Source of the DNA: Streptomyces sp. PCS3-D2
GTDB taxonomy: Bacteria; Actinomycetota; Actinomycetes; Streptomycetales; Streptomycetaceae
NCBI RefSeq assembly: GCF_000612545.2
Contig: NZ_CP097800.1
Coordinates: forward strand, 1,488,001-1,552,000
Length of the DNA stretch: 64,000 bases
Direction: 5' to 3'
Positions 18,614-27,968 of the stretch are shown piece after piece. Within the stretch, counting starts at the first letter, position 1. The number at the start of each line of letters is the position of its first letter. A program made the position numbers and the translations under genes. Under the pieces are notes generated by a model. That model was not told where the DNA came from and did not search any database. It saw only the letters and a program-made list of their open reading frames with translations.

Positions 18614-21600
18614 TCACTGTTCCCCGCCGCCGAGCAGGTGGATGTCCCAGGTGTCGTCCGGACGCCGGCGGACCGCCCAGCGGCCTGGCCGGTCCTCGAA
18701 GGCGGACCCGGGCGGCTCCCGGAGGCTCAGCTGTTCCAGCCTGACCCTGCCCCGGAAGGTGGCTCCGCCGAAGTCCACCGGTCCTCGGAACACCGCACCG
18801 GTGGACACCAGTCCCAGTTCCCAGGTCGTGGAGGCGAAGGAGACCGGTCCGGTGAAGGAGGCCCCGCTCAGCCCGGTCAGGCCGCAGAACACCGCGCGCG
18901 AGAAGTCCGCGGCCGCGACCGCCCGCAGCCCGTTCAGGTCCGCCGAGGCCTCCAGCACCGCACGGGCGAAGGACACCTCGTCCAGGAAGACGCTGTCCGA
19001 GAAGCCCGCCAGTCCGCGGAACTGCGCGCGGCGGAAGTCGGCTCCCGCCCGGAACCGGCTGCGGTCGAAGTCGCCGACGCCCAGGAACACGGCGCGGTCG
19101 AAGGAGGCCCGTCCGGCGAAGGTGGAGTTCCCGAGCCTGGCCCGCCCGGCGAAAACGGCCCGGGTGAAGGATGCGCGGGCCAGGAACTCGATGCCGCCCT
19201 CGTTCCAGTCGTCCACGAAGGTGGCGCGGTCGAAGGCCGCCCCGCCCAGCGTGACGGGCTGCGAGCGGGACTCCCGCAAGACGTTCAGGAGCCGCTGGAG
19301 CAGCCCTCCCTCGAAGGTGGTTCCCCGGAAGTCCACCGCGGCCCCGGGCCCGAGGGTCTCCAGGTACGCGTGCTCCTCGTCGGGATCGAGATGGGCGAGG
19401 CACGCGTCGTGGCCGGGCAGCCGGATTCCCGTGCACGGGGCGCGGAGATCCTCCGCCCCACGGCGACCGCACACCGGCCACGCGACGCCGGCCTCCTGTG
19501 ACCCGTCGGCCTCGGTCAGGGCCGCGCCGAGTCCCTGGGGGTCGGTGCACAACCAGCCGTCCCCCGTGCCGCCGAGCGGCACGAGGGCACGCGTCGCCGT
19601 GGGGCCGACCTCCTCGCCGAGCGCCTCGTACAGGGGGTGGGACAGGGCGACGTTCAGGGACCAGGGAAACCGCCGGCGCCGCTCCGTCATCCCGGGATGC
19701 CGGACGATCCGGACGGCCTCGGACGCGGGCGGCCCGGTGGGGTCGCCGCCCAGCGGGACGGTCGCGGCAGGCCCCACGGCCACGGCCACGTCGAGCGGGA
19801 GGGGACCGCTGCCCAGACCTGCGAACCGGCCCGTCTCGTCGTGGAGTTCGGTCAGCAGTCGGCCGGCCTTGCCGAGGGCTCCCGGCCCCGCCAGCAGCAG
19901 GACCACGGGTGCACCGGGCTCACCGCCGTCCGGCCGCTCGGTGACGCCCGCCTCCGCGACGCACCGCGTCAGCAGTTCCACCGTCTCCGCGTGGAGCGAG
20001 CTGCCGGCCCGATGCACACCATCGCCGGCGGGCCGCACGGCCAGGCACACGGAGGCGGTCGCCACCGGACGTACCGGCCCGTGCTCCGCCATCACGGCAC
20101 GGAAGCCGGGCTGTTCCAGGAGGGCGCGGCCCGACAGGAACACCATGCGGTCGGGCCAGACGCCGTGGACGACGCCGATCAGCGTGCCGTCGCGGGAGAC
20201 CGGGCCGCCGCGGTAGTGGGTCCAGGCCTCCGGTTCCCCGGACAGCCGGACCAGCTCCCCGTTGCGGGCGCCCTCGTACGGAACCACCTCCCCCGTCAGG
20301 GCGACGGGCTCCCCCTGGTCGGTGCGGCCGTCGACCCGCACCCGCGCGACCTGGTCGTCCGCGGTCAGCCAGGGCAGGGGCAGCGCGCAGACCGTCGGGT
20401 CCGCGAGGTCCTCGTCGGCCAGCAGCAGAAACACCCTGGGCAGCGCGTCGTCCCACCACAGCGGTCGGCACGGGACCTCGCGACCGCCGGCCCGGACCCA
20501 GGCGACGGTGCTCCGGGCCGGCGGGGCGTCCCCGACCGTGAGGACCAGCCGCGCCGTGAGCAGGACGCCGACCTCCTGCGGCTCCGGCACCGGCTCGTGG
20601 CGGACCCGTACGACCCGGTCCGCCAGACCGGGTTCTCCCGGCGGCCGGGTGGCGAACGCCAGGGTGGCGTCGGCCACCCGGCGGCGGCCCTCGCGGCCGT
20701 CGGCGACACGGGTCGCGGAGAAGTCCGGCCCGGTGCCGCGGCTGCGGGTCATGTACTCCCACACACGGCGGCGGACCAGTTCCCGTACGGCGGCCACGTC
20801 CCCGCGCAGCTGCGAGCCGAGCAGCACCTCGCGGACACCGGGCAGGAACTCGAACTCCAGCTCCTCGGCGTCCCGTTCGTGGTCCCAGGGGGCGAACAGT
20901 CCGCCGAGGGCGACCTCGGCGAGGTGGCCGTGCTCGGAGCCTCCCAGCAGGGAGCGCCGGACCAGGTTCATGACCGGCAGGGTCAGCGGTACGGCGGCCA
21001 GGTGCGCGGCCAGCTGCTGAGCGGTCGGGGAGGCACTTGCGCGGAAGCGTTCCACCACGTCCAGGGGGTTGTGGGGAGCGGCCGCGGTGCTTTCGCCCAC
21101 GCGCGGCGCTCCCGGCCCGCGCTCCGGATCCGCGTCCAGCCGCAGACAGCCCAGGCGTCGCCAGCGGCCGTCTCCGGCGACCACCCGCACCAGCCGGGCC
21201 AGACCGCCCGGGGCGACGCCGACCACGGGGACGATGTCGGGCGCGCGGCCGCGCGCGGTCCGCGATCGCCGGGCGGTCGCCACCCGTTGCCAGGAGCGGG
21301 TGGCCGCCGCGGGCCGGTCAGCCCGGACGGCGAAGGGGACCGGCCGGACGGCGCCGCGCGTCCAGAGCCGTTCGGGCAGCACGTTCAGCACGGCCACCGC
21401 GTTGTGCGTGCACCAGTGCCGGAGCACGCCCTGCACGGAGGCCTCGCGCCAGCCGCCCGCCACGGTGTCGGAGAGGACCAGGATCAGCCTGCGGCCCGCG
21501 GGGTCGGCCAGCTCCAGCGGGTTGCGGGGCGCGTCGGACCGGCCGCGGGTGAGCATCACGGGGGCGCCGTAGCCGGTGCCCGTCAGCCGCCAGACCCGTA

Positions 21601-22204
21601 CGTCGCGGAAGACGCCGCTGCGGGTCAGTACGCGGCGCAGTTCGTCCACGAGGTCCGCCCACAGCAGCATCGAATGGTGCGTGTCGACCACGAGCGCCAG
21701 GTCCAGCCAGCGGCTCTCGGCCGGGCGCAGGACGGGGGTCGGCACCATCCGCTCGATGCTGCGCTCCACGGTGAGCTGCTCGTCGAGCTCTTCACCCGGA
21801 CCTCCGATGGAGCGCCGGCCGACCGGCCGCAGGGCGCGCATCAGGGCGAGCGGGTCGTCGAGGGAGGCGGCGCGGGGCAGTCGTACGGGTGAGCCCCGGC
21901 GGCCGGCGCCGTCGTCGCCGGGTTTCCCGGCCGGGTCGGCGACGGATGCGGGGAAGAGCCTGACGGCCGGGTGGCCGTCGGCCGGGCCGCCGGCAGGCGT
22001 CGCGGCCTCGGGTGCCGTGGTGTCAGCGGCCGGCGGCCGCTCGTCCGCGGCGTCGCCGAGCGGCAGCGCGGGCGGGCGGGACCAGGCGGGGTCCACCCGG
22101 GCGGCCAACCACAGGATGTCGGCGATCTCCTCGGTGCCGATGCCGGGGCGCGGGCCCGCGTCCTCGGCACCGTCGGCGAGGGCGGCGAGCAGCTCCCCGA
22201 TCAC
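18614..22204 (-). CDS. vWA-like SAV_2336-type protein with degenerate trypsin-like domain and pentapeptide repeats
   Basis: 1,196 residues, last gene of the predicted conflict operon. About 1-160 is an N-terminal region like SAV_2336 proteins; about 165-490 is vWA-like (DLALVVDTHHSMLLW in place of the DxSxS MIDAS; ILVLSDTVAGGW). About 535-700 has a chymotrypsin-like layout (VGVLLTARLVLTVGD ... YRGGPVSRDGTLIGVVHG), but the usual LTCAH histidine and GxSGGP serine are missing, so it should not be catalytic. A second alpha/beta segment lies at 710-880. A Cys/His knuckle (PVCGRRGAEDL ... CLAHL, 911-939) leads into pentapeptide repeats at about 955-1150 (ADFRRAQFRG, ASFDRAVF). GTG 22204 overlaps the ATPase stop (GTGA), so the two should be co-translated. 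Confidence 0.8.
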   Translation of the reverse strand: MIGELLAALADGAEDAGPRPGIGTEEIADILWLAARVDPAWSRPPALPLGDAADERPPAADTTAPEAATPAGGPADGHPAVRLFPASVADPAGKPGDDGAGRRGSPVRLPRAASLDDPLALMRALRPVGRRSIGGPGEELDEQLTVERSIERMVPTPVLRPAESRWLDLALVVDTHHSMLLWADLVDELRRVLTRSGVFRDVRVWRLTGTGYGAPVMLTRGRSDAPRNPLELADPAGRRLILVLSDTVAGGWREASVQGVLRHWCTHNAVAVLNVLPERLWTRGAVRPVPFAVRADRPAAATRSWQRVATARRSRTARGRAPDIVPVVGVAPGGLARLVRVVAGDGRWRRLGCLRLDADPERGPGAPRVGESTAAAPHNPLDVVERFRASASPTAQQLAAHLAAVPLTLPVMNLVRRSLLGGSEHGHLAEVALGGLFAPWDHERDAEELEFEFLPGVREVLLGSQLRGDVAAVRELVRRRVWEYMTRSRGTGPDFSATRVADGREGRRRVADATLAFATRPPGEPGLADRVVRVRHEPVPEPQEVGVLLTARLVLTVGDAPPARSTVAWVRAGGREVPCRPLWWDDALPRVFLLLADEDLADPTVCALPLPWLTADDQVARVRVDGRTDQGEPVALTGEVVPYEGARNGELVRLSGEPEAWTHYRGGPVSRDGTLIGVVHGVWPDRMVFLSGRALLEQPGFRAVMAEHGPVRPVATASVCLAVRPAGDGVHRAGSSLHAETVELLTRCVAEAGVTERPDGGEPGAPVVLLLAGPGALGKAGRLLTELHDETGRFAGLGSGPLPLDVAVAVGPAATVPLGGDPTGPPASEAVRIVRHPGMTERRRRFPWSLNVALSHPLYEALGEEVGPTATRALVPLGGTGDGWLCTDPQGLGAALTEADGSQEAGVAWPVCGRRGAEDLRAPCTGIRLPGHDACLAHLDPDEEHAYLETLGPGAAVDFRGTTFEGGLLQRLLNVLRESRSQPVTLGGAAFDRATFVDDWNEGGIEFLARASFTRAVFAGRARLGNSTFAGRASFDRAVFLGVGDFDRSRFRAGADFRRAQFRGLAGFSDSVFLDEVSFARAVLEASADLNGLRAVAAADFSRAVFCGLTGLSGASFTGPVSFASTTWELGLVSTGAVFRGPVDFGGATFRGRVRLEQLSLREPPGSAFEDRPGRWAVRRRPDDTWDIHLLGGGEQ

Positions 22205-23271
22205 GCCGTGGGCCCGGTCAGGTGCTGCATGACGGTCTTGAGGAAGCGGTCGCGGTCGCCGGGCGCGGACCAGGCTCCGGCCAGGCGCAGCTGGATGGCG
22301 TTCAGGAGCTGGTCGGTGGCGAGGTCCCCGTCCCCGGACCGGTCGATGAAGTCCCGGACGAGTTCCCGGTACTCCCCGCCGGCCTCGACGTCGATGCCGA
22401 GGCGGCGGCGCACGATGAGGGCGAGCTTCTCCTCGCCGGGGGGCTCCAGGTGCAGGCGGACGCAGCGGCGCAGGAAGGCGGGCGGGAAGTCGCGTTCGCC
22501 GTTGCTGGTGAGGATGACGATGGGGAAGTAGCGGCACTGCACGCGGCCTTGCGGGATGCGTACGGCGGCGTCCGGGTCGTCGTCGGTACCGATGGCGACG
22601 GCGGGGTCCTCCTGGGCGAGGCGGGCCAGTTCGGGGATGACGAAGCCGCCGTCCTCGAAGACGGTCAGGAGGTCGCCGGGGAGGTCGATGTCGCTCTTGT
22701 CGATCTCGTCGACGAGCAGGACGCGGGGCCGGTCCTGCGGCAGCAGGGCGGTGCCGAGCGGCCCGAGCCGCAGGTAGCGGGAGATCGAGGGTGCGTGGGC
22801 GGGCTCGGGTCCGGCTTCGGGCGTGGGGGCGCCGCCGGGCGGACCGGCCGGCCTGCGCAGTTGGTCCAGCCCGGCCTCCTGGAGGCGGCCGATGGCGTCG
22901 TACAGGTACAGCCCGTCGCGGAGCACGGTCCGGCTGGTGATCGGCCAGTGCAGTACGGGACCCAGGGCGAGGTCCGAAGCGATGCTGTAGGCGAGGGTGG
23001 ACTTCCCGACACCCGGCTTCCCGGTGATCAGCAGCGGCCTGCGCAGGTGCAGGGCGGTGTTGACGACGTCCTTCTCCTGCTCGTCGGGGACGTAGCCCTC
23101 GCCGCGGCTGCGGGTGCGCTCCCAGGCCGGGCCCTCGCACCCGGGCGGCGCGTACCCGGGGTCGGGGGTTCCGGTGAAGTGCCGCCAGGGCGGCGGGGGC
23201 CCGGCTTCCAGGCGGGCGCGGCGGTCCGCGCCCTCACCGGTCCCGTGGTACAGCCACCAGTCCTTCACCAC
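22201..23271 (-). CDS. MoxR-like AAA ATPase of the VMAP-type system
   Basis: 356 residues. A AAA+ ATPase expected to use ATP to remodel or gate its partners. Walker A GKPGVGKST at 84-92; Walker B VLLVDEIDK at 184-192; sensor-1 IVILTSNGERDFP at 251-263; arginine finger candidates Arg268/Arg269 in AFLRRCVRL. Long insert with Pro/Gly between 140 and 160. GTG 23271 is chosen because GGAGG lies 8 bp upstream. It sits 47 bp after the caspase-like gene and overlaps the vWA gene. A MoxR-type ATPase next to a vWA protein and a VMAP protein is the defining core of the predicted ternary conflict systems. Confidence 0.88.
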   Translation of the reverse strand: MVKDWWLYHGTGEGADRRARLEAGPPPPWRHFTGTPDPGYAPPGCEGPAWERTRSRGEGYVPDEQEKDVVNTALHLRRPLLITGKPGVGKSTLAYSIASDLALGPVLHWPITSRTVLRDGLYLYDAIGRLQEAGLDQLRRPAGPPGGAPTPEAGPEPAHAPSISRYLRLGPLGTALLPQDRPRVLLVDEIDKSDIDLPGDLLTVFEDGGFVIPELARLAQEDPAVAIGTDDDPDAAVRIPQGRVQCRYFPIVILTSNGERDFPPAFLRRCVRLHLEPPGEEKLALIVRRRLGIDVEAGGEYRELVRDFIDRSGDGDLATDQLLNAIQLRLAGAWSAPGDRDRFLKTVMQHLTGPTA

Positions 23272-23318
23272 TGCCTCTGCCTCCGTCGTCGTGTCGCCGT
23301 CTGTCGGTGGGGTCGGGG

Positions 23319-25382
23319 TCAGGCCAGGGACCGGAAGCCCGGTATGTCGTCGGGATCGTCCCACAGGAGCACCAACTGGTCTGCTCCTGAGTCGCGTTGG
23401 GCGGCGCTTCGGTCGCTCGCGGCGGCGCCGGCGGCCGCCCGGCGCACTTCGCGCACCCGCGCGGGCAGGGACAGCACGTCCAGTGCGCCGGGATCCGGCC
23501 GTCCGTCGGGCCCGTGCGGCGCGAGCAGGTCGAGGAGCGGGGGCGCCGGCGCGCCGCCGCCGCGCCGCCACACGGCGACCGGCACGCCGCCTTCGAGTAC
23601 GGCTTCGAGCAGGCCCGCGTGCGGGGCGGCGACGGTGTGCGCGAGGACGCACGCGGGCGCCGGCCGGTCGGCCAACTCCATCCCCAGCACGTCCGTGACG
23701 TCGGTCTCCTTCACCACCCGTACGGCCTCGGGGTGCCGGCCGCCCCGGGTGCACAGCCAGCGCCAGCTGGCGTGCCATTCGGCGCGGGTGTCCACGCGTT
23801 CTTGGGGGCAGCGCACCACGACCTGGTGGAGCAGGCCGAGGGCCCGGGGCCGCCCGGCCGGGCCGCGGGGCACCGACCACTGGTCGAAGTCGGCGTCGAG
23901 GAGTTCGTACGGCACGTGGAACTCGATGCGGTCGACGCCGCCCCGGGTCCGCGGCCCGGCCTCGCCGCCCTCGGGCGGCGAGGCACCGACGAGGGCGAGC
24001 CGCCGCAGCAGTTCCCCCCGTACGGCGTCCAGGCGCACGGGCTCGCCCCCCGACTCCCAGATCTGCTCGGTGCGTTCGCCGCTCAGCCAGATCCGGGCCC
24101 GGAGGCCGGGCCCGCCGTCCGGCGGCGGCTCCAGCCCGACGTGCACCACGGTCGTACGCGCCGGGGGCGGCGGCGGGGGCAGCACCGGCAGGACGAGCCG
24201 CTCGCGGGTGGCGTCCACCCAGCCTTTCAGCCGCCCCGCCCAGGCCGCGTCGCCGGCCGTCCCGGCCCGGTCGGCGAGGAAGCGCACGAAGGGTACGGCC
24301 AGCGGCATCCCGCCGTGCCCGCCCTGGCGTTCGTCCAGGTCCTGGACCACCTCCAGCAGGGCGTCGCCGGGCAGGCCCCCGCCGACGGGGGTGGTGCAGC
24401 CGGCCGCCCTGAAGGCCCATGCGTAGGCCTCGTAGGCGCAGCGCGGCAGTTCGCGGCCTTCGAAGACCTCGGCGAGCCCGTCCCAGGCCTGCTGGTCGAG
24501 CCGGGCCGCCCGGGGCGGCGCGGGGGCGGTCAGGCCGTCGTCGAGGAAGGAGCAGGCGTCCCAGTCGCGGTCCACGAGGAACTGCGGGAGTTGCCAGCCC
24601 TCGCCGCGTTCGCGCAGTTCCTGGAAGGTGCGGTGGATGCTGCGGGCGGCGACCGGAAGCCCGCTGACGCTCTCCCGCAGGGAGCGTGCGCCGAGTTCGG
24701 AGAGGAGGGCCTCGGTGAAGCGGCCGGCGCCGCGCTCGGCGTCGTTCTGCGCGGCCTCGCCCTCGCGGGAGGCGTAGAGCCGGAACTGGCGGCGTCCGGG
24801 CACCGCGCTGCCGCCGCCGTAGTCGGTGCTGCCGAAGTTCCACCGGGCGTCGCGGGGCGCGTCCACCCGGCAGGAGTCGACGAGCGCGGCCTGGAGCGGG
24901 AAGCTGCGGTGCTTGACCAGGTCGGTGCGCCACCAGCGCAGTGCCGAGTCGAGGTTGAGGTGCCGGATCTGGCTGGGGCGGGCGTCCGCGCAGGGCAGCA
25001 TCAGCTCCTGGCGCGGCCCGAGGTAACCGTGTCCGGCCCAGAAGATCCACAGCAGGTCGCCGTCGCACTGCGGGAGTTCGTCGAGCAGCGCCGCCTTGAC
25101 GTTCTCCTCGGTCGCGGGCCGGTACGCGGTCCGCAGGGCGTCCATGGCCGGGGAGTCCGGCCAGTGGAGGGCGTCGGGTTCGTCGAGCGGGGACAGCAGC
25201 AGCCTGAGGTTGCCGGGCGGCACCTGGGCGGGGCCGGTCAGCCACTGGGCGAAGCGCAGGGCGTCGCGGGCCGGGCCGCGCAGGTTCCAGCGGTGGCTGA
25301 TGTCGTAGCGCTCGACGCCGGCGACGAGCGCGAAGGTGCGCTGCGGGCCGAGGGCCGGGGGCAGGAAGTCGGAGGGGATCAC
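23319..25382 (-). CDS. Caspase-like peptidase fused to VMAP-type domains
   Basis: 687 residues. N-terminal caspase/metacaspase fold at about 12-260: TFALVAGVERYD opens the p20-like sheet, His118 lies in FWAGHGYLG and the nucleophile Cys171 in ALVDSCRVD, so the His/Cys dyad is intact. About 295-375 is a helical middle domain (VPFVRFLADRA); about 410-687 fits the VMAP C-terminal domain (IEFHVPYELLDADFDQW; end VLLWDDPDDIPGF). It is the predicted executioner of the system. GTG 25382 overlaps the hydrolase stop (GTGA); the 47-bp gap to the ATPase gene carries that gene's own ribosome-binding site. No signal peptide, so it acts in the cytoplasm. Confidence 0.83.
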   Translation of the reverse strand: MIPSDFLPPALGPQRTFALVAGVERYDISHRWNLRGPARDALRFAQWLTGPAQVPPGNLRLLLSPLDEPDALHWPDSPAMDALRTAYRPATEENVKAALLDELPQCDGDLLWIFWAGHGYLGPRQELMLPCADARPSQIRHLNLDSALRWWRTDLVKHRSFPLQAALVDSCRVDAPRDARWNFGSTDYGGGSAVPGRRQFRLYASREGEAAQNDAERGAGRFTEALLSELGARSLRESVSGLPVAARSIHRTFQELRERGEGWQLPQFLVDRDWDACSFLDDGLTAPAPPRAARLDQQAWDGLAEVFEGRELPRCAYEAYAWAFRAAGCTTPVGGGLPGDALLEVVQDLDERQGGHGGMPLAVPFVRFLADRAGTAGDAAWAGRLKGWVDATRERLVLPVLPPPPPPARTTVVHVGLEPPPDGGPGLRARIWLSGERTEQIWESGGEPVRLDAVRGELLRRLALVGASPPEGGEAGPRTRGGVDRIEFHVPYELLDADFDQWSVPRGPAGRPRALGLLHQVVVRCPQERVDTRAEWHASWRWLCTRGGRHPEAVRVVKETDVTDVLGMELADRPAPACVLAHTVAAPHAGLLEAVLEGGVPVAVWRRGGGAPAPPLLDLLAPHGPDGRPDPGALDVLSLPARVREVRRAAAGAAASDRSAAQRDSGADQLVLLWDDPDDIPGFRSLA

Positions 25383-26638
25383 CCGATCTCCGCTTCGGCC
25401 ACCGCCTGTTCGATCCGGCCGTAGAGGGCGTCCTGTTTCCAGTAGGCGCTGTGGCAGGCGGGGAAGGGCTGGCGGCTGCCGATCTCGTGGTCGGTGATCC
25501 GCGGGTCGCCGGGGAAGACGGGGGCGGCCAGGTAGGACAGCACGTCCTGGCGGTCGTAGACGTTGAGCCAGCGCGGGAAGCCGTGGGGAAGTTTCGCGCC
25601 CGGTTCGAGCGCGGTCAGGGCGCCGAGCTCGTAGAGGAAGGGGGCCTGGGAGCCGACGGTGACGAGGAGAGCCGCGCCGGGGACGGCCTCGCCGCGGGCG
25701 GCGGCGAGGGCGAGGAGGTCCACGAGGGCGATCCCGCCGAGGCTGTGGCCGATGAGCACGGTCGGTCCGGGGGCGGCGGCGATCCGGGTGTGCAGGTACT
25801 GCCTCAACTCGTGGCCGCGGGCCTGGTAGCGCAGGATGTCGCCGAGCGCGGGGGTTGCCGCGGCGGTGAGGGAGCCGCGCCGGGCGTTGAGCAGGGGCTG
25901 GGTGGTGACCCGCAGGGCGAGCCGGCCGAGGAAGGCGGCCGCGCGGGCGCCGGGCACCCGGGCGTCGCCACCGAGGCGGGTGGTGAGCAGTTCGACGAGG
26001 CGGTCGCGTTCGGCGCCGGTGCAGTCGGCCTCGGCTCCGGCGTCGGCGAGCGCCCCGGCTGCGACGGCCCTGGAGAGGGCGGTCGCCAGCTCCCGCGCCT
26101 GCGGTTCGCCGGTGGCGCGTTCCGCGGCGCGGGCCGCCTCCGCGGAGCGGACGACGGCGTCGAGGGCGGCGGGGAAGTCCGCCGCGAGTGCGGTGCCATG
26201 CAGGAGCGCGCCGAGCTCGTCCCCGGGGTGCGGGGGCGCGGGCGGTAGGCCGGACAGCTGCGCGAGTACCCGGATCCCGGCGGGCTGGACGCCGGGCATG
26301 GCGAAGGGGTCTCCGTCGGCGACGTCGTCCGCGCCCCCGGGTCCGGAGGGCCAGCCGGCCTCGGCGAGGACCCGGAGTTCGCACAGCGGGTCGGCGAGCA
26401 GCAAGGCCCATTCGGCCGTCTCGGCGTCGGTGGGGTCGGGTGAGGCTCCCGTCGCGGACTTCGATCCGGGCACGGAGCGGCCGCCGGCGCCGAGGGTCGC
26501 GCCGAAGCGGTCGCCCCAGTAGCAGGAGTCGACGGCGGCGCCGGGGAATCTGGCCGTCAGCCGCTCGCGGACCAGGGCGAAGAGCCGGTCGTGCCGGTCG
26601 CGCCGTACGCCCGTGCCGTGGACAAAGAGAAAACGCAT
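25379..26638 (-). CDS. Alpha/beta-hydrolase, first gene of the VMAP-type operon
   Basis: 419 residues. N-terminal strand MRFLFVHGTGVRRDRHD gives the oxyanion-hole HGTG motif. The nucleophile elbow is GHSLGG at 297-302 (Ser299), with candidate acid Asp362 or Asp365 (NVYDRQDVLSYL) and His396 (PACHSAYW). Residues 50-260 form a large Ala-rich insertion (cap). Lipase, esterase or other serine hydrolase activity is possible; the substrate is unknown. ATG 26638 begins the conserved strand. The four-base overlap with the caspase-like gene says they are made together, so this may be a second effector or a regulator of the system. Confidence 0.8.
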   Translation of the reverse strand: MRFLFVHGTGVRRDRHDRLFALVRERLTARFPGAAVDSCYWGDRFGATLGAGGRSVPGSKSATGASPDPTDAETAEWALLLADPLCELRVLAEAGWPSGPGGADDVADGDPFAMPGVQPAGIRVLAQLSGLPPAPPHPGDELGALLHGTALAADFPAALDAVVRSAEAARAAERATGEPQARELATALSRAVAAGALADAGAEADCTGAERDRLVELLTTRLGGDARVPGARAAAFLGRLALRVTTQPLLNARRGSLTAAATPALGDILRYQARGHELRQYLHTRIAAAPGPTVLIGHSLGGIALVDLLALAAARGEAVPGAALLVTVGSQAPFLYELGALTALEPGAKLPHGFPRWLNVYDRQDVLSYLAAPVFPGDPRITDHEIGSRQPFPACHSAYWKQDALYGRIEQAVAEAEIG

Positions 26639-27008: not shown

Positions 27009-27968
27009 ATGTCCAGCAGGGTCGAGGGGCGGCAGCCGGGGCGGGCCGCGGCGCGGGGCGGCGTGGCCGTCGGCCTCGTGTGCACCCTGGTCCTCGTGGG
27101 GGCCGGGTACGTCGCCTGGGAGCTGCGCGGCATCGCCGCCCACCGCGCCGACGGCGACCCGGCGCGGGGCGTCTACCAGCAGGACCCCGAGAAGGCCGAC
27201 CGGACGGCTTCGGCCGTACTCGACGGGATCGCCCGTGAACCGACCGAACCGCCCGCGGACGGCGGGGCGTTCGCCGCGGCGGACGCGGTGGACTGGCGCT
27301 CCGGCGGCTGGGAGCCCTCCGATCCGTTGGAGGCCCGGCCCGCCCCGGCCGAACCGGCGGTCGGCGCCCTCTTCTCCCCCGGCAACGACGGCGACCCCGA
27401 CCACCACTGCTCCGGCGTCGTGGTCCACTCGCCGCTCGGAGACCTCGTCGCCACGGCCGCCCACTGCGTGTACGGCGGCGGCTTCCGCACCAACCTCGCC
27501 TTCGCCCCCGGCTACCGGGACGGGATCGCACCGTACGGCGTGTGGGTGCCCACCCGCATCGACGTGGACCCGCGCTGGACGGCGGACGAGGACCCCGACG
27601 TCGACATCGCGTTCCTCCGGCTGCGCCGGCCCGGACACCCCGGCCAGCGGCTGGAGGACGTCACCGGCGCCACGACGATCGCCTTCGGAACCGAACTGCC
27701 CGCGCCCACACGGCTCGTCGGCTACCCGAACGCCTCCGAGCAGCCCCTGGACTGCCGGACCACCGCCCGCCCGGCGGGCCCGACGCAGGTACGGCTGGAC
27801 TGTGCGGACGTGCCCAACGGGACCAGCGGCGGTCCGGTGCTGACCGATGGGCACACCCTCGTCGGGGTGATCGGCGGCCTCGACGGCGGCGGCGACGACG
27901 AGACCTCCTACAGCATCCGCTTCGGCGACCGCGTACGCGCCCTCCACGAACGCGCCACCCGGCCCTGA
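27009..27968 (+). CDS. Membrane-anchored trypsin-like serine protease
   Basis: 319 residues. One N-terminal transmembrane segment at about 17-36 (GVAVGLVCTLVLVGAGYVAW) places the rest outside the membrane. A linker rich in Pro/Ala/Glu follows, then a chymotrypsin-fold domain at about 118-315. The catalytic triad is complete: His152 (TAAHCVY), Asp199 (DPDVDIAF) and Ser273 (NGTSGGPV). Cys134/Cys153 and Cys249/Cys265 could form disulfides. ATG 27009 lies behind GGAGGGG. It is divergent from the caspase/MoxR operon; a functional link is possible but not shown by the sequence. Confidence 0.88.
   Translation: MSSRVEGRQPGRAAARGGVAVGLVCTLVLVGAGYVAWELRGIAAHRADGDPARGVYQQDPEKADRTASAVLDGIAREPTEPPADGGAFAAADAVDWRSGGWEPSDPLEARPAPAEPAVGALFSPGNDGDPDHHCSGVVVHSPLGDLVATAAHCVYGGGFRTNLAFAPGYRDGIAPYGVWVPTRIDVDPRWTADEDPDVDIAFLRLRRPGHPGQRLEDVTGATTIAFGTELPAPTRLVGYPNASEQPLDCRTTARPAGPTQVRLDCADVPNGTSGGPVLTDGHTLVGVIGGLDGGGDDETSYSIRFGDRVRALHERATRP

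What the first reader, a model, noticed from the sequence alone, without database searches (positions are those of the whole stretch)
18614..26638. Four-gene vWA-MoxR-VMAP-like conflict operon with a caspase and a hydrolase
Seen: four leftward genes, two junctions with GTGA stop/start overlaps, encode an alpha/beta hydrolase (GHSLGG), a caspase-like protease with intact His118/Cys171 fused to domains whose ends fit VMAP-C (EFHVPYELLDADFDQW, LLWDDPDDIPGF), a MoxR-like ATPase, and a vWA-like protein. Known: Aravind's group predicted ternary vWA-MoxR-VMAP systems as NTP-dependent conflict modules in multicellular bacteria. Inference: this is such a system, with ATPase-gated activation of a suicide protease, and the coupled hydrolase as an extra effector or sensor. 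I do not know of an experimentally tested version with this gene set.
Basis: partly seen in the sequence, partly recalled or inferred. Interest (0 to 1): 0.85.

Follow-up and report, generated by a model that had tools for sequence, protein, structure and literature searches.

The report
Streptomyces caspase-type VMAP conflict operon
This four-gene Streptomyces operon belongs to a predicted but apparently untested family of bacterial immune or cell-suicide switches (VMAP ternary systems), and its relatives suggest that its hydrolase enzyme travels with the system's caspase-like protease.

Summary
Four minus-strand genes at 18614-26638 encode an alpha/beta-hydrolase, a caspase fused to VMAP-C, a MoxR-like ATPase and a vWA protein, with two GTGA overlaps. 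VMAP-C is clear (Pfam 107 bits, cut-off 27) and the MoxR motifs peculiar to VMAP systems are present. This is a VMAP ternary conflict system. Kaur et al. 2020 already described this gene set, including the rule that caspase-VMAPs have a hydrolase neighbour: a new member of a known kind; my searches found no experimental test.

The comparison adds: (1) the hydrolase tracks the caspase. It lies directly upstream in 36 of 37 fused caspase-VMAP loci; of 31 separate hydrolase-caspase pairs extended, 29 lie in the order VMAP-MoxR-vWA-hydrolase-caspase; one relative has lost both. (2) Hydrolase Ser/Asp/His and caspase His/Cys are invariant in 70 of 70 pairs. (3) The caspase models as MALT1-like. (4) The vWA protein carries a degenerate trypsin fold and pentapeptide repeats; relatives swap this part for TPR, TIR, CRP, cold-shock or kinase domains.

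The boldest reading not excluded: the caspase switches on a latent hydrolase, as proteases switch on nucleases in Hachiman, AVAST and canu.

The parts
25379..26638 (-). alpha/beta-hydrolase (419 aa), first gene; triad Ser299 (25742-25744), Asp362 (25553-25555), His396 (25451-25453); about 290 residues between HGTG and GHSLGG
   Evidence: the three residues are invariant in 70 of 70 hydrolase-caspase pairs; Abhydrolase_6 matches 10 of 33 aligned members. Which Asp is catalytic (362 or 365, both invariant) is not settled
25379..25382 (-). GTGA stop/start overlap hydrolase-VMAP
   Evidence: the same -4 spacing in 29 of 33 measured loci
24558..25382 (-). caspase domain of the VMAP, residues 1-275; His118 (25029-25031), Cys171 (24870-24872), acidic Asp169
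24123..24530 (-). VMAP middle region, residues 285-420, predicted mainly helical, matching no Pfam VMAP-M model
   Evidence: AF2 secondary structure; no VMAP-M hit at E<=1
23352..24101 (-). VMAP-C domain, residues 428-677
   Evidence: Pfam PF20028 E 1.7e-30
23319..25382 (-). whole caspase-VMAP gene (687 aa)
22201..23364 (-). MoxR-type AAA+ ATPase (start uncertain: 23364, 23271 or 23268); Walker A GKPGVGKS at 22999-23022; VMAP-specific motifs WWLYHG and PPWRHF near the N-terminus
   Evidence: AAA_5 25.9 bits, cut-off 22; motif residues W36, G41, P58, P59, W60, R61, F63 and Walker B D219, E220 invariant in A4, 31 sequences
22201..22204 (-). GTGA stop/start overlap MoxR-vWA
   Evidence: -4 spacing in 24 of 31 measured loci
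18614..22204 (-). vWA component (1196 aa)
20759..22135 (-). vWA core with flanking extensions (SAV_2336_NTERM), residues 24-482; Asp174 and Asp246 invariant in 33 of 33
20627..20755 (-). low-confidence hinge with F-x-A-x-R499 ... PFA, between constant core and variable effector region; candidate but unproven protease site
   Evidence: AF2 pLDDT under 50 at 477-523; R 29 and K 1 of 33; against:
20081..20665 (-). degenerate trypsin/HtrA-fold domain, residues 514-708; the usual catalytic His and Ser positions, judged by motif, are Asp and Arg
19499..20053 (-). unassigned alpha/beta domain, residues 718-902
   Evidence: AF2 secondary structure; no Pfam match
18710..19327 (-). pentapeptide-repeat domain, about residues 960-1165
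   Evidence: Pentapeptide_3 69.3 bits, cut-off 27, best stretch 1046-1092; regular short strands in the model

Best explanation
This is a fused caspase-type VMAP ternary conflict system of Streptomyces. Shown by sequence: hydrolase, caspase-VMAP, MoxR and vWA-effector genes in a tightly packed operon with intact catalytic residues in hydrolase, caspase and ATPase, a swappable vWA-effector tail, and the hydrolase following the caspase across two operon layouts. Inferred: VMAP-C, MoxR and vWA form an ATP-dependent latch; when a trigger (probably a phage component) is sensed, the latch remodels and frees or clusters the caspase, which cuts after Arg or Lys. The caspase then acts with the hydrolase as its dedicated partner, and may also cut the vWA hinge to release the effector tail; the infected hyphal compartment is sacrificed or shut down. 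The confidence below is for identity plus a functional hydrolase-caspase pairing. The order of events after sensing is much less certain (about 0.4).
For: VMAP-C, SAV_2336 and caspase matches; MoxR diagnostic motifs as published; order VMAP-MoxR-vWA and -4 overlaps kept; hydrolase directly upstream in 36 of 37 fused caspase-VMAP loci and attached to no VMAP in the 36 control loci without a caspase-VMAP, within the stretches held; of 31 separate pairs extended, 29 have the order VMAP-MoxR-vWA-hydrolase-caspase; reciprocal: 28 of 30 hydrolase loci held have a caspase next to them; co-loss in L130; catalytic residues 70 of 70; distance correlation 0.97; effector tail swapped; caspase fold MALT1-like.
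Against: No expression, phage or toxicity data. The hydrolase substrate is unknown and its fold was not modelled. Four of 38 caspases without a VMAP-C nearby lack the hydrolase (L146, L150, L158, L167). One fused system (L089) lacks both hydrolase and MoxR. One hydrolase sits beside a VMAP with no caspase (L204), although a separate caspase-EAD2 lies about 9.5 kb from the hydrolase on the other strand. Sampling was seeded by similarity to the window proteins, so the counts describe this group, not all VMAPs. Of 54 hydrolase places only 30 were held as loci; most of the rest are weak or partial. Vertical descent inflates the correlation.
Confidence: 0.72

Rival explanations
1. The caspase's main substrate is the vWA hinge (Kaur model): the activated caspase cuts after R499 and releases the effector tail, and the hydrolase is an accessory enzyme.
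For: Peptidase release of effectors is the published proposal. The hinge is low-confidence in the model and keeps F-x-A-x-R/K in 30 of 33 sequences despite tail swapping; the other three read F-x-A-R-L. In the 15 of 36 non-caspase controls (L130 left out) where I could see an F-x-A-like motif by eye, that position is not Arg or Lys; two pattern hits ending in Arg (L104, L106) lie elsewhere in the sequence.
Against: The 29 split-layout vWA proteins and L203 lack the motif by eye, and L130 keeps it without a caspase. The pattern could therefore be ancestry only. The tail here looks catalytically dead, so it is unclear what release would achieve.
Confidence: 0.35
2. The vWA tail is the sensor and the VMAP N-terminal caspase is the executioner (the reverse direction, as Dore et al. 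propose for DGR-diversified ternary systems).
For: The tail is the fastest-changing part: residues 691-970 keep 39-68% identity against 79-90% for the vWA core in the nine relatives L033-L040 and L042. It is built of binding-type or dead-enzyme domains here. Alternative model in PMC10907252 (passages).
Against: Some relatives' tails carry domains that are effectors elsewhere, such as TIR; no ligand is known.
Confidence: 0.35
3. The operon is a developmental or stress cell-death regulator of Streptomyces hyphae, not an antiviral system.
For: In the close clade the operon sits at a fixed chromosomal place: the ion-channel neighbour was found in 9 of 35 loci examined (stretches differ in length). 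Streptomyces has developmental cell death (recalled).
Against: The neighbour was not found in the other 26 loci, most of them more distant relatives; presence is patchy (24 of 393 genomes with a match spanning most of the protein, two candidates scored per genome, so a lower bound); tails are swapped.
Confidence: 0.15
4. The hydrolase is a negative regulator or maturation factor of the caspase rather than a downstream enzyme.
For: It is the gene translated just before the caspase in nearly all pairs, with a 4-base overlap in 29 of 33 fused loci measured, which suits equimolar assembly.
Against: A full catalytic triad in 70 of 70 suggests that catalysis matters.
Confidence: 0.2

Closest known systems
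VMAP ternary systems with caspase-VMAP (Kaur, Burroughs, Iyer, Aravind, eLife 2020, PMC7159879)
   Same: VMAP-C, MoxR, vWA in that order; caspase at the VMAP N-terminus; neighbouring alpha/beta-hydrolase; inactive trypsin in the vWA tail; the paper also says that such peptidases may be stand-alone genes next to the VMAP gene
   Different: The middle region matches no Pfam VMAP-M model; this particular tail combination was not found named in the parts read
canu and the nuclease-protease pairs of Hachiman, AVAST, Lamassu (Tuck et al., Science 2025, PMC12799240)
   Same: A latent enzyme encoded beside a protease; MALT1-like caspase in canu; in Hachiman, AVAST and Lamassu the enzyme gene lies upstream and the protease is fused N-terminally to an immune module
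   Different: The partner here is an alpha/beta-hydrolase, not an MBL-fold nuclease; activation by cleavage is not shown
Caspase-EACC1 two-gene systems (PMC7159879, passages)
   Same: A caspase as constant component with variable tails
   Different: No EACC1 in this operon; caspase_w_EACC1 scores 34.8 bits against a cut-off of 140. One relative, L130, carries EACC1 on its vWA tail

Membership tests
VMAP ternary conflict system | VMAP-C domain | tested here: met
   PF20028 107.1 bits, cut-off 27
VMAP ternary conflict system | gene order VMAP, MoxR, vWA | tested here: met
VMAP ternary conflict system | MoxR N-terminal motifs WxhapG and PsWRxa | tested here: met
   WWLYHG at 36-41 and PPWRHF at 58-63 of P0003; W36, G41, P58, P59, W60, R61, F63 invariant in 31 MoxR sequences; motif text
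VMAP ternary conflict system | MoxR-clade AAA+ (helix-2 insert, arginine finger) | tested here: inconclusive
   AAA_5 just over cut-off; the insert and finger were not modelled
VMAP ternary conflict system | vWA with two metal-site aspartates | tested here: met
   Asp174 and Asp246 in 33 of 33, taken from their place in the sequence; no Pfam VWA match, but SAV_2336_NTERM over cut-off
VMAP ternary conflict system | vWA N-terminal motif [D/E]xxx[D/E]xxxa | tested here: inconclusive
   E25/E26, D29, W32 are near; the aromatic is one residue early
VMAP ternary conflict system | helical VMAP-M middle region | tested here: inconclusive
   mainly helical in AF2; no VMAP-M Pfam match
VMAP ternary conflict system | caspase-VMAP accompanied by alpha/beta-hydrolase gene | tested here: met
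   window, and 36 of 37 fused loci including it
VMAP ternary conflict system | variable domains C-terminal to vWA | tested here: met
VMAP ternary conflict system | antiviral or cell-death function | not testable with these tools
   predicted in PMC7159879; no test seen in the listings (open-access library only)
caspase superfamily (paracaspase/metacaspase-like) | fold and His/Cys dyad | tested here: met
alpha/beta-hydrolase | nucleophile elbow and catalytic triad | tested here: met
   Ser299, Asp362 (and Asp365), His396 in 70 of 70; fold not modelled
canu caspase-nuclease system | MBL-fold nuclease partner | tested here: not met
   no MBL domain listed for the four proteins at E<=1
caspase-EACC1 system | EACC1 component | tested here: not met
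   no EACC1 in the four proteins; caspase model below cut-off

The most novel reading that the evidence does not exclude
The hydrolase is a latent enzyme, perhaps a lipase, that the Arg/Lys-specific caspase switches on by cutting in the long insert (about 290 residues lie between oxyanion motif and nucleophile; Arg190, Arg211, Arg227 and Arg254 are invariant or nearly so in an otherwise variable stretch). Caspase-type VMAP systems would then be caspase-activated hydrolase switches: another class of protease-armed enzyme beside the nucleases of Hachiman/AVAST and canu, deployed either fused to the VMAP or as a separate, mostly EAD2-tethered pair.
Probability: 0.25. Interest if true: 0.75.

Novelty: new member of a known kind. 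Interest (0 to 1): 0.42.

Why it matters
My searches of the open-access library listed no tested caspase-VMAP system. This one is compact and has intact catalytic residues to mutate. The survey turns a one-line published remark (caspase-VMAPs always have a hydrolase) into a sharp, testable claim that the hydrolase is the caspase's own partner, and it links these systems to a proven mechanism of protease-armed immune enzymes.

Tried and rejected
Portable pair outside VMAP systems: I first read the 38 caspase matches without a VMAP-C within about 4 kb (34 with hydrolase) as independent of VMAP. The EAD2 survey and longer stretches refuted this: 29 of the 31 extended are the 3' part of a VMAP operon. 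Only L237 (own genome, caspase-NACHT) and L217 have no VMAP in the stretch; the genome of L217 has an EAD2-VMAP on the other strand, about 8 kb away. Three of the 34 (L136, L154, L156) were not extended.

R499 as a general caspase site: weakened (see the first rival).

PDB sequence searches with three alignments gave no convincing hit (the best was metacaspase-4 at E 0.033). A phylum-wide draw of 296 genomes gave 7 with a match, only the own genome spanning the model; four candidates were scored per genome, so this is a lower bound. VIA-align lists were filled by the caspase and by the trypsin-like domain, so VMAP-C, the middle region and residues 718-902 remain untested for fold. Four control VMAP reading frames (L098, L099, L120, L124) were mis-called; they count as controls only through the profile search. 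The hydrolase-VMAP gap is out of 33 of 35 loci: L089 has no hydrolase and L116 no located VMAP start. In the trypsin-like domain one relative, L083, keeps a His and a Ser near the usual places, so inactivity is not shown for all relatives; Trypsin_2 matches in relatives are below cut-off.
Full report
Observation. The genome holds a second VMAP system, of trypsin type and with no hydrolase in the stretch held. VMAP-C itself is common in the genus: 167 of 199 genomes.

Already published. Kaur et al. 2020 (PMC7159879; abstract and outline, section 8 and section 19 whole, first parts of sections 9 and 10, and passages) describe the VMAP-MoxR-vWA order, caspase at the VMAP N-terminus, the statement that an alpha/beta-hydrolase gene always neighbours such caspases, occasional stand-alone peptidase genes next to the VMAP gene, related hydrolases in GAP1-N1 systems, and nearly always inactive trypsins in the vWA tail. 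The gene set is therefore known, and the split layout below is foreshadowed. No experimental test of a caspase-VMAP system appeared in the listings of searches, which cover an open-access library only. Dore et al. 2024 (PMC10907252, passages) say that their sensor proposal remains to be experimentally tested.

Fused layout. I collected 37 fused caspase-VMAP loci: the window, L033-L042, L073-L092, L113-L116, L152/L205 and L168/L203. The hydrolase is directly upstream in 36; L089 lacks it. Among the first 35, MoxR was found in 33 and vWA in 32; L041 and L115 are cut by contig ends, L082 lacks both and L089 lacks MoxR. The hydrolase-VMAP gap is -4 in 29 of 33 measured. Among 36 VMAP loci without a caspase-VMAP, none has a hydrolase gene belonging to the VMAP operon within the stretch held; L131 has a separate hydrolase-caspase pair on the other strand. 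L204 is an exception found later (below).

Split layout. Of 40 further caspase matches, two were fused VMAPs with hydrolase. Of the other 38, 34 have the hydrolase directly upstream and four do not. I extended 31 of these 34: 29 show VMAP, MoxR, vWA, hydrolase, caspase in that order on one strand. Seven of the eight non-VMAP caspases scanned carry EAD2; four of the five VMAPs scanned from these split operons carry EAD2, and five of five VMAP-M0. So where the caspase is a separate downstream gene rather than the VMAP's N-terminus, the hydrolase stands with it. Reciprocally, 28 of the 30 hydrolase loci held have a caspase adjacent (54 places in all, mostly one locus held per genome). Of the two others, L202 is a partial match cut short, and L186/L204 has the hydrolase beside an EAD2-VMAP with a caspase-EAD2 about 9.5 kb away on the other strand. 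L130, a close relative by MoxR and vWA (65% and 54% identity), has lost caspase and hydrolase together. The own genome has one hydrolase-caspase pair fused to NACHT, with no VMAP in the stretch held.

Co-evolution and catalysis. In 70 pairs (36 fused, 34 separate), hydrolase Ser299, Asp362 and His396 and caspase His and Cys are invariant. Hydrolase and caspase distances correlate at r = 0.97, with no shuffle of 2000 as high; shared descent explains part of this. The two trees place fused and separate pairs in largely the same groups but differ on L172 and L168, both long branches; the caspase tree is the quick one, the careful search not having finished.

Tail swapping. Against the window, the vWA core keeps 79-90% identity in nine relatives (L033-L040, L042), while residues 691-970 keep 39-68%. 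Across the 33 aligned sequences, window included, 21 have pentapeptide repeats; of 10 divergent ones scanned, tails are TPR, CRP-like, TIR with caspase and EAD2, TIR with a weak trypsin match, cold-shock, kinase, or pentapeptide with or without EACC1.

Mechanism. Published logic plus this anatomy suggest an ATP-dependent latch that releases the caspase. The hydrolase's close tie to the caspase makes it the likeliest partner or substrate. Tuck et al. 2025 (PMC12799240; abstract, outline and passages) show that a protease encoded next to a latent nuclease activates it by cleavage, and that canu uses a MALT1-like caspase. The hydrolase has a long stretch between HGxG and GHSLGG (267-332 residues, median 282, in the 46 of 70 that matched both patterns), longer than usual (recalled), and Arg190, Arg211, Arg227 and Arg254 in this stretch are kept in 68, 69, 68 and 70 of 70. 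This permits, but does not show, a gated enzyme; the arginines may be structural. The vWA hinge motif is a second candidate substrate with mixed evidence.

Verdict. The finding is real and correctly identified, and it belongs to a published, predicted class. Its value lies in the refined hydrolase-caspase hypothesis and a clean construct for an experimental test.

Noticed in passing
L206 (G159:C1:9028000-9046000); L089: A second caspase-VMAP beside a short vWA protein (697 aa), with no MoxR or hydrolase found, about 34 kb from a complete system (L088) in the same genome; it might borrow that system's MoxR.
   Followed up: partly
L082: Hydrolase and caspase-VMAP present, VMAP-C altered after about residue 590, MoxR and vWA not found: perhaps a decaying system.
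   Followed up: partly
L130: Close relative with caspase and hydrolase both lost and an EACC1 domain on the vWA tail.
   Followed up: partly
L237 (G000:C1:6910754-6930753): The window's own genome has another hydrolase-caspase pair, the caspase fused to a NACHT NTPase, with no VMAP in the stretch held.
   Followed up: partly
L086:3159-7853: vWA tail carrying TIR, a second caspase domain and EAD2 in one protein, beside a caspase-VMAP.
   Followed up: no
window 27009-27968 (+): Divergent trypsin-like protease gene next to the operon, found near it in 9 of 35 loci examined; probably synteny of one clade only.
   Followed up: partly
window 19391-19471 (-): Cys/His-rich stretch (vWA protein residues 912-938) just before the pentapeptide repeats, possibly a small zinc site.
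   Followed up: no
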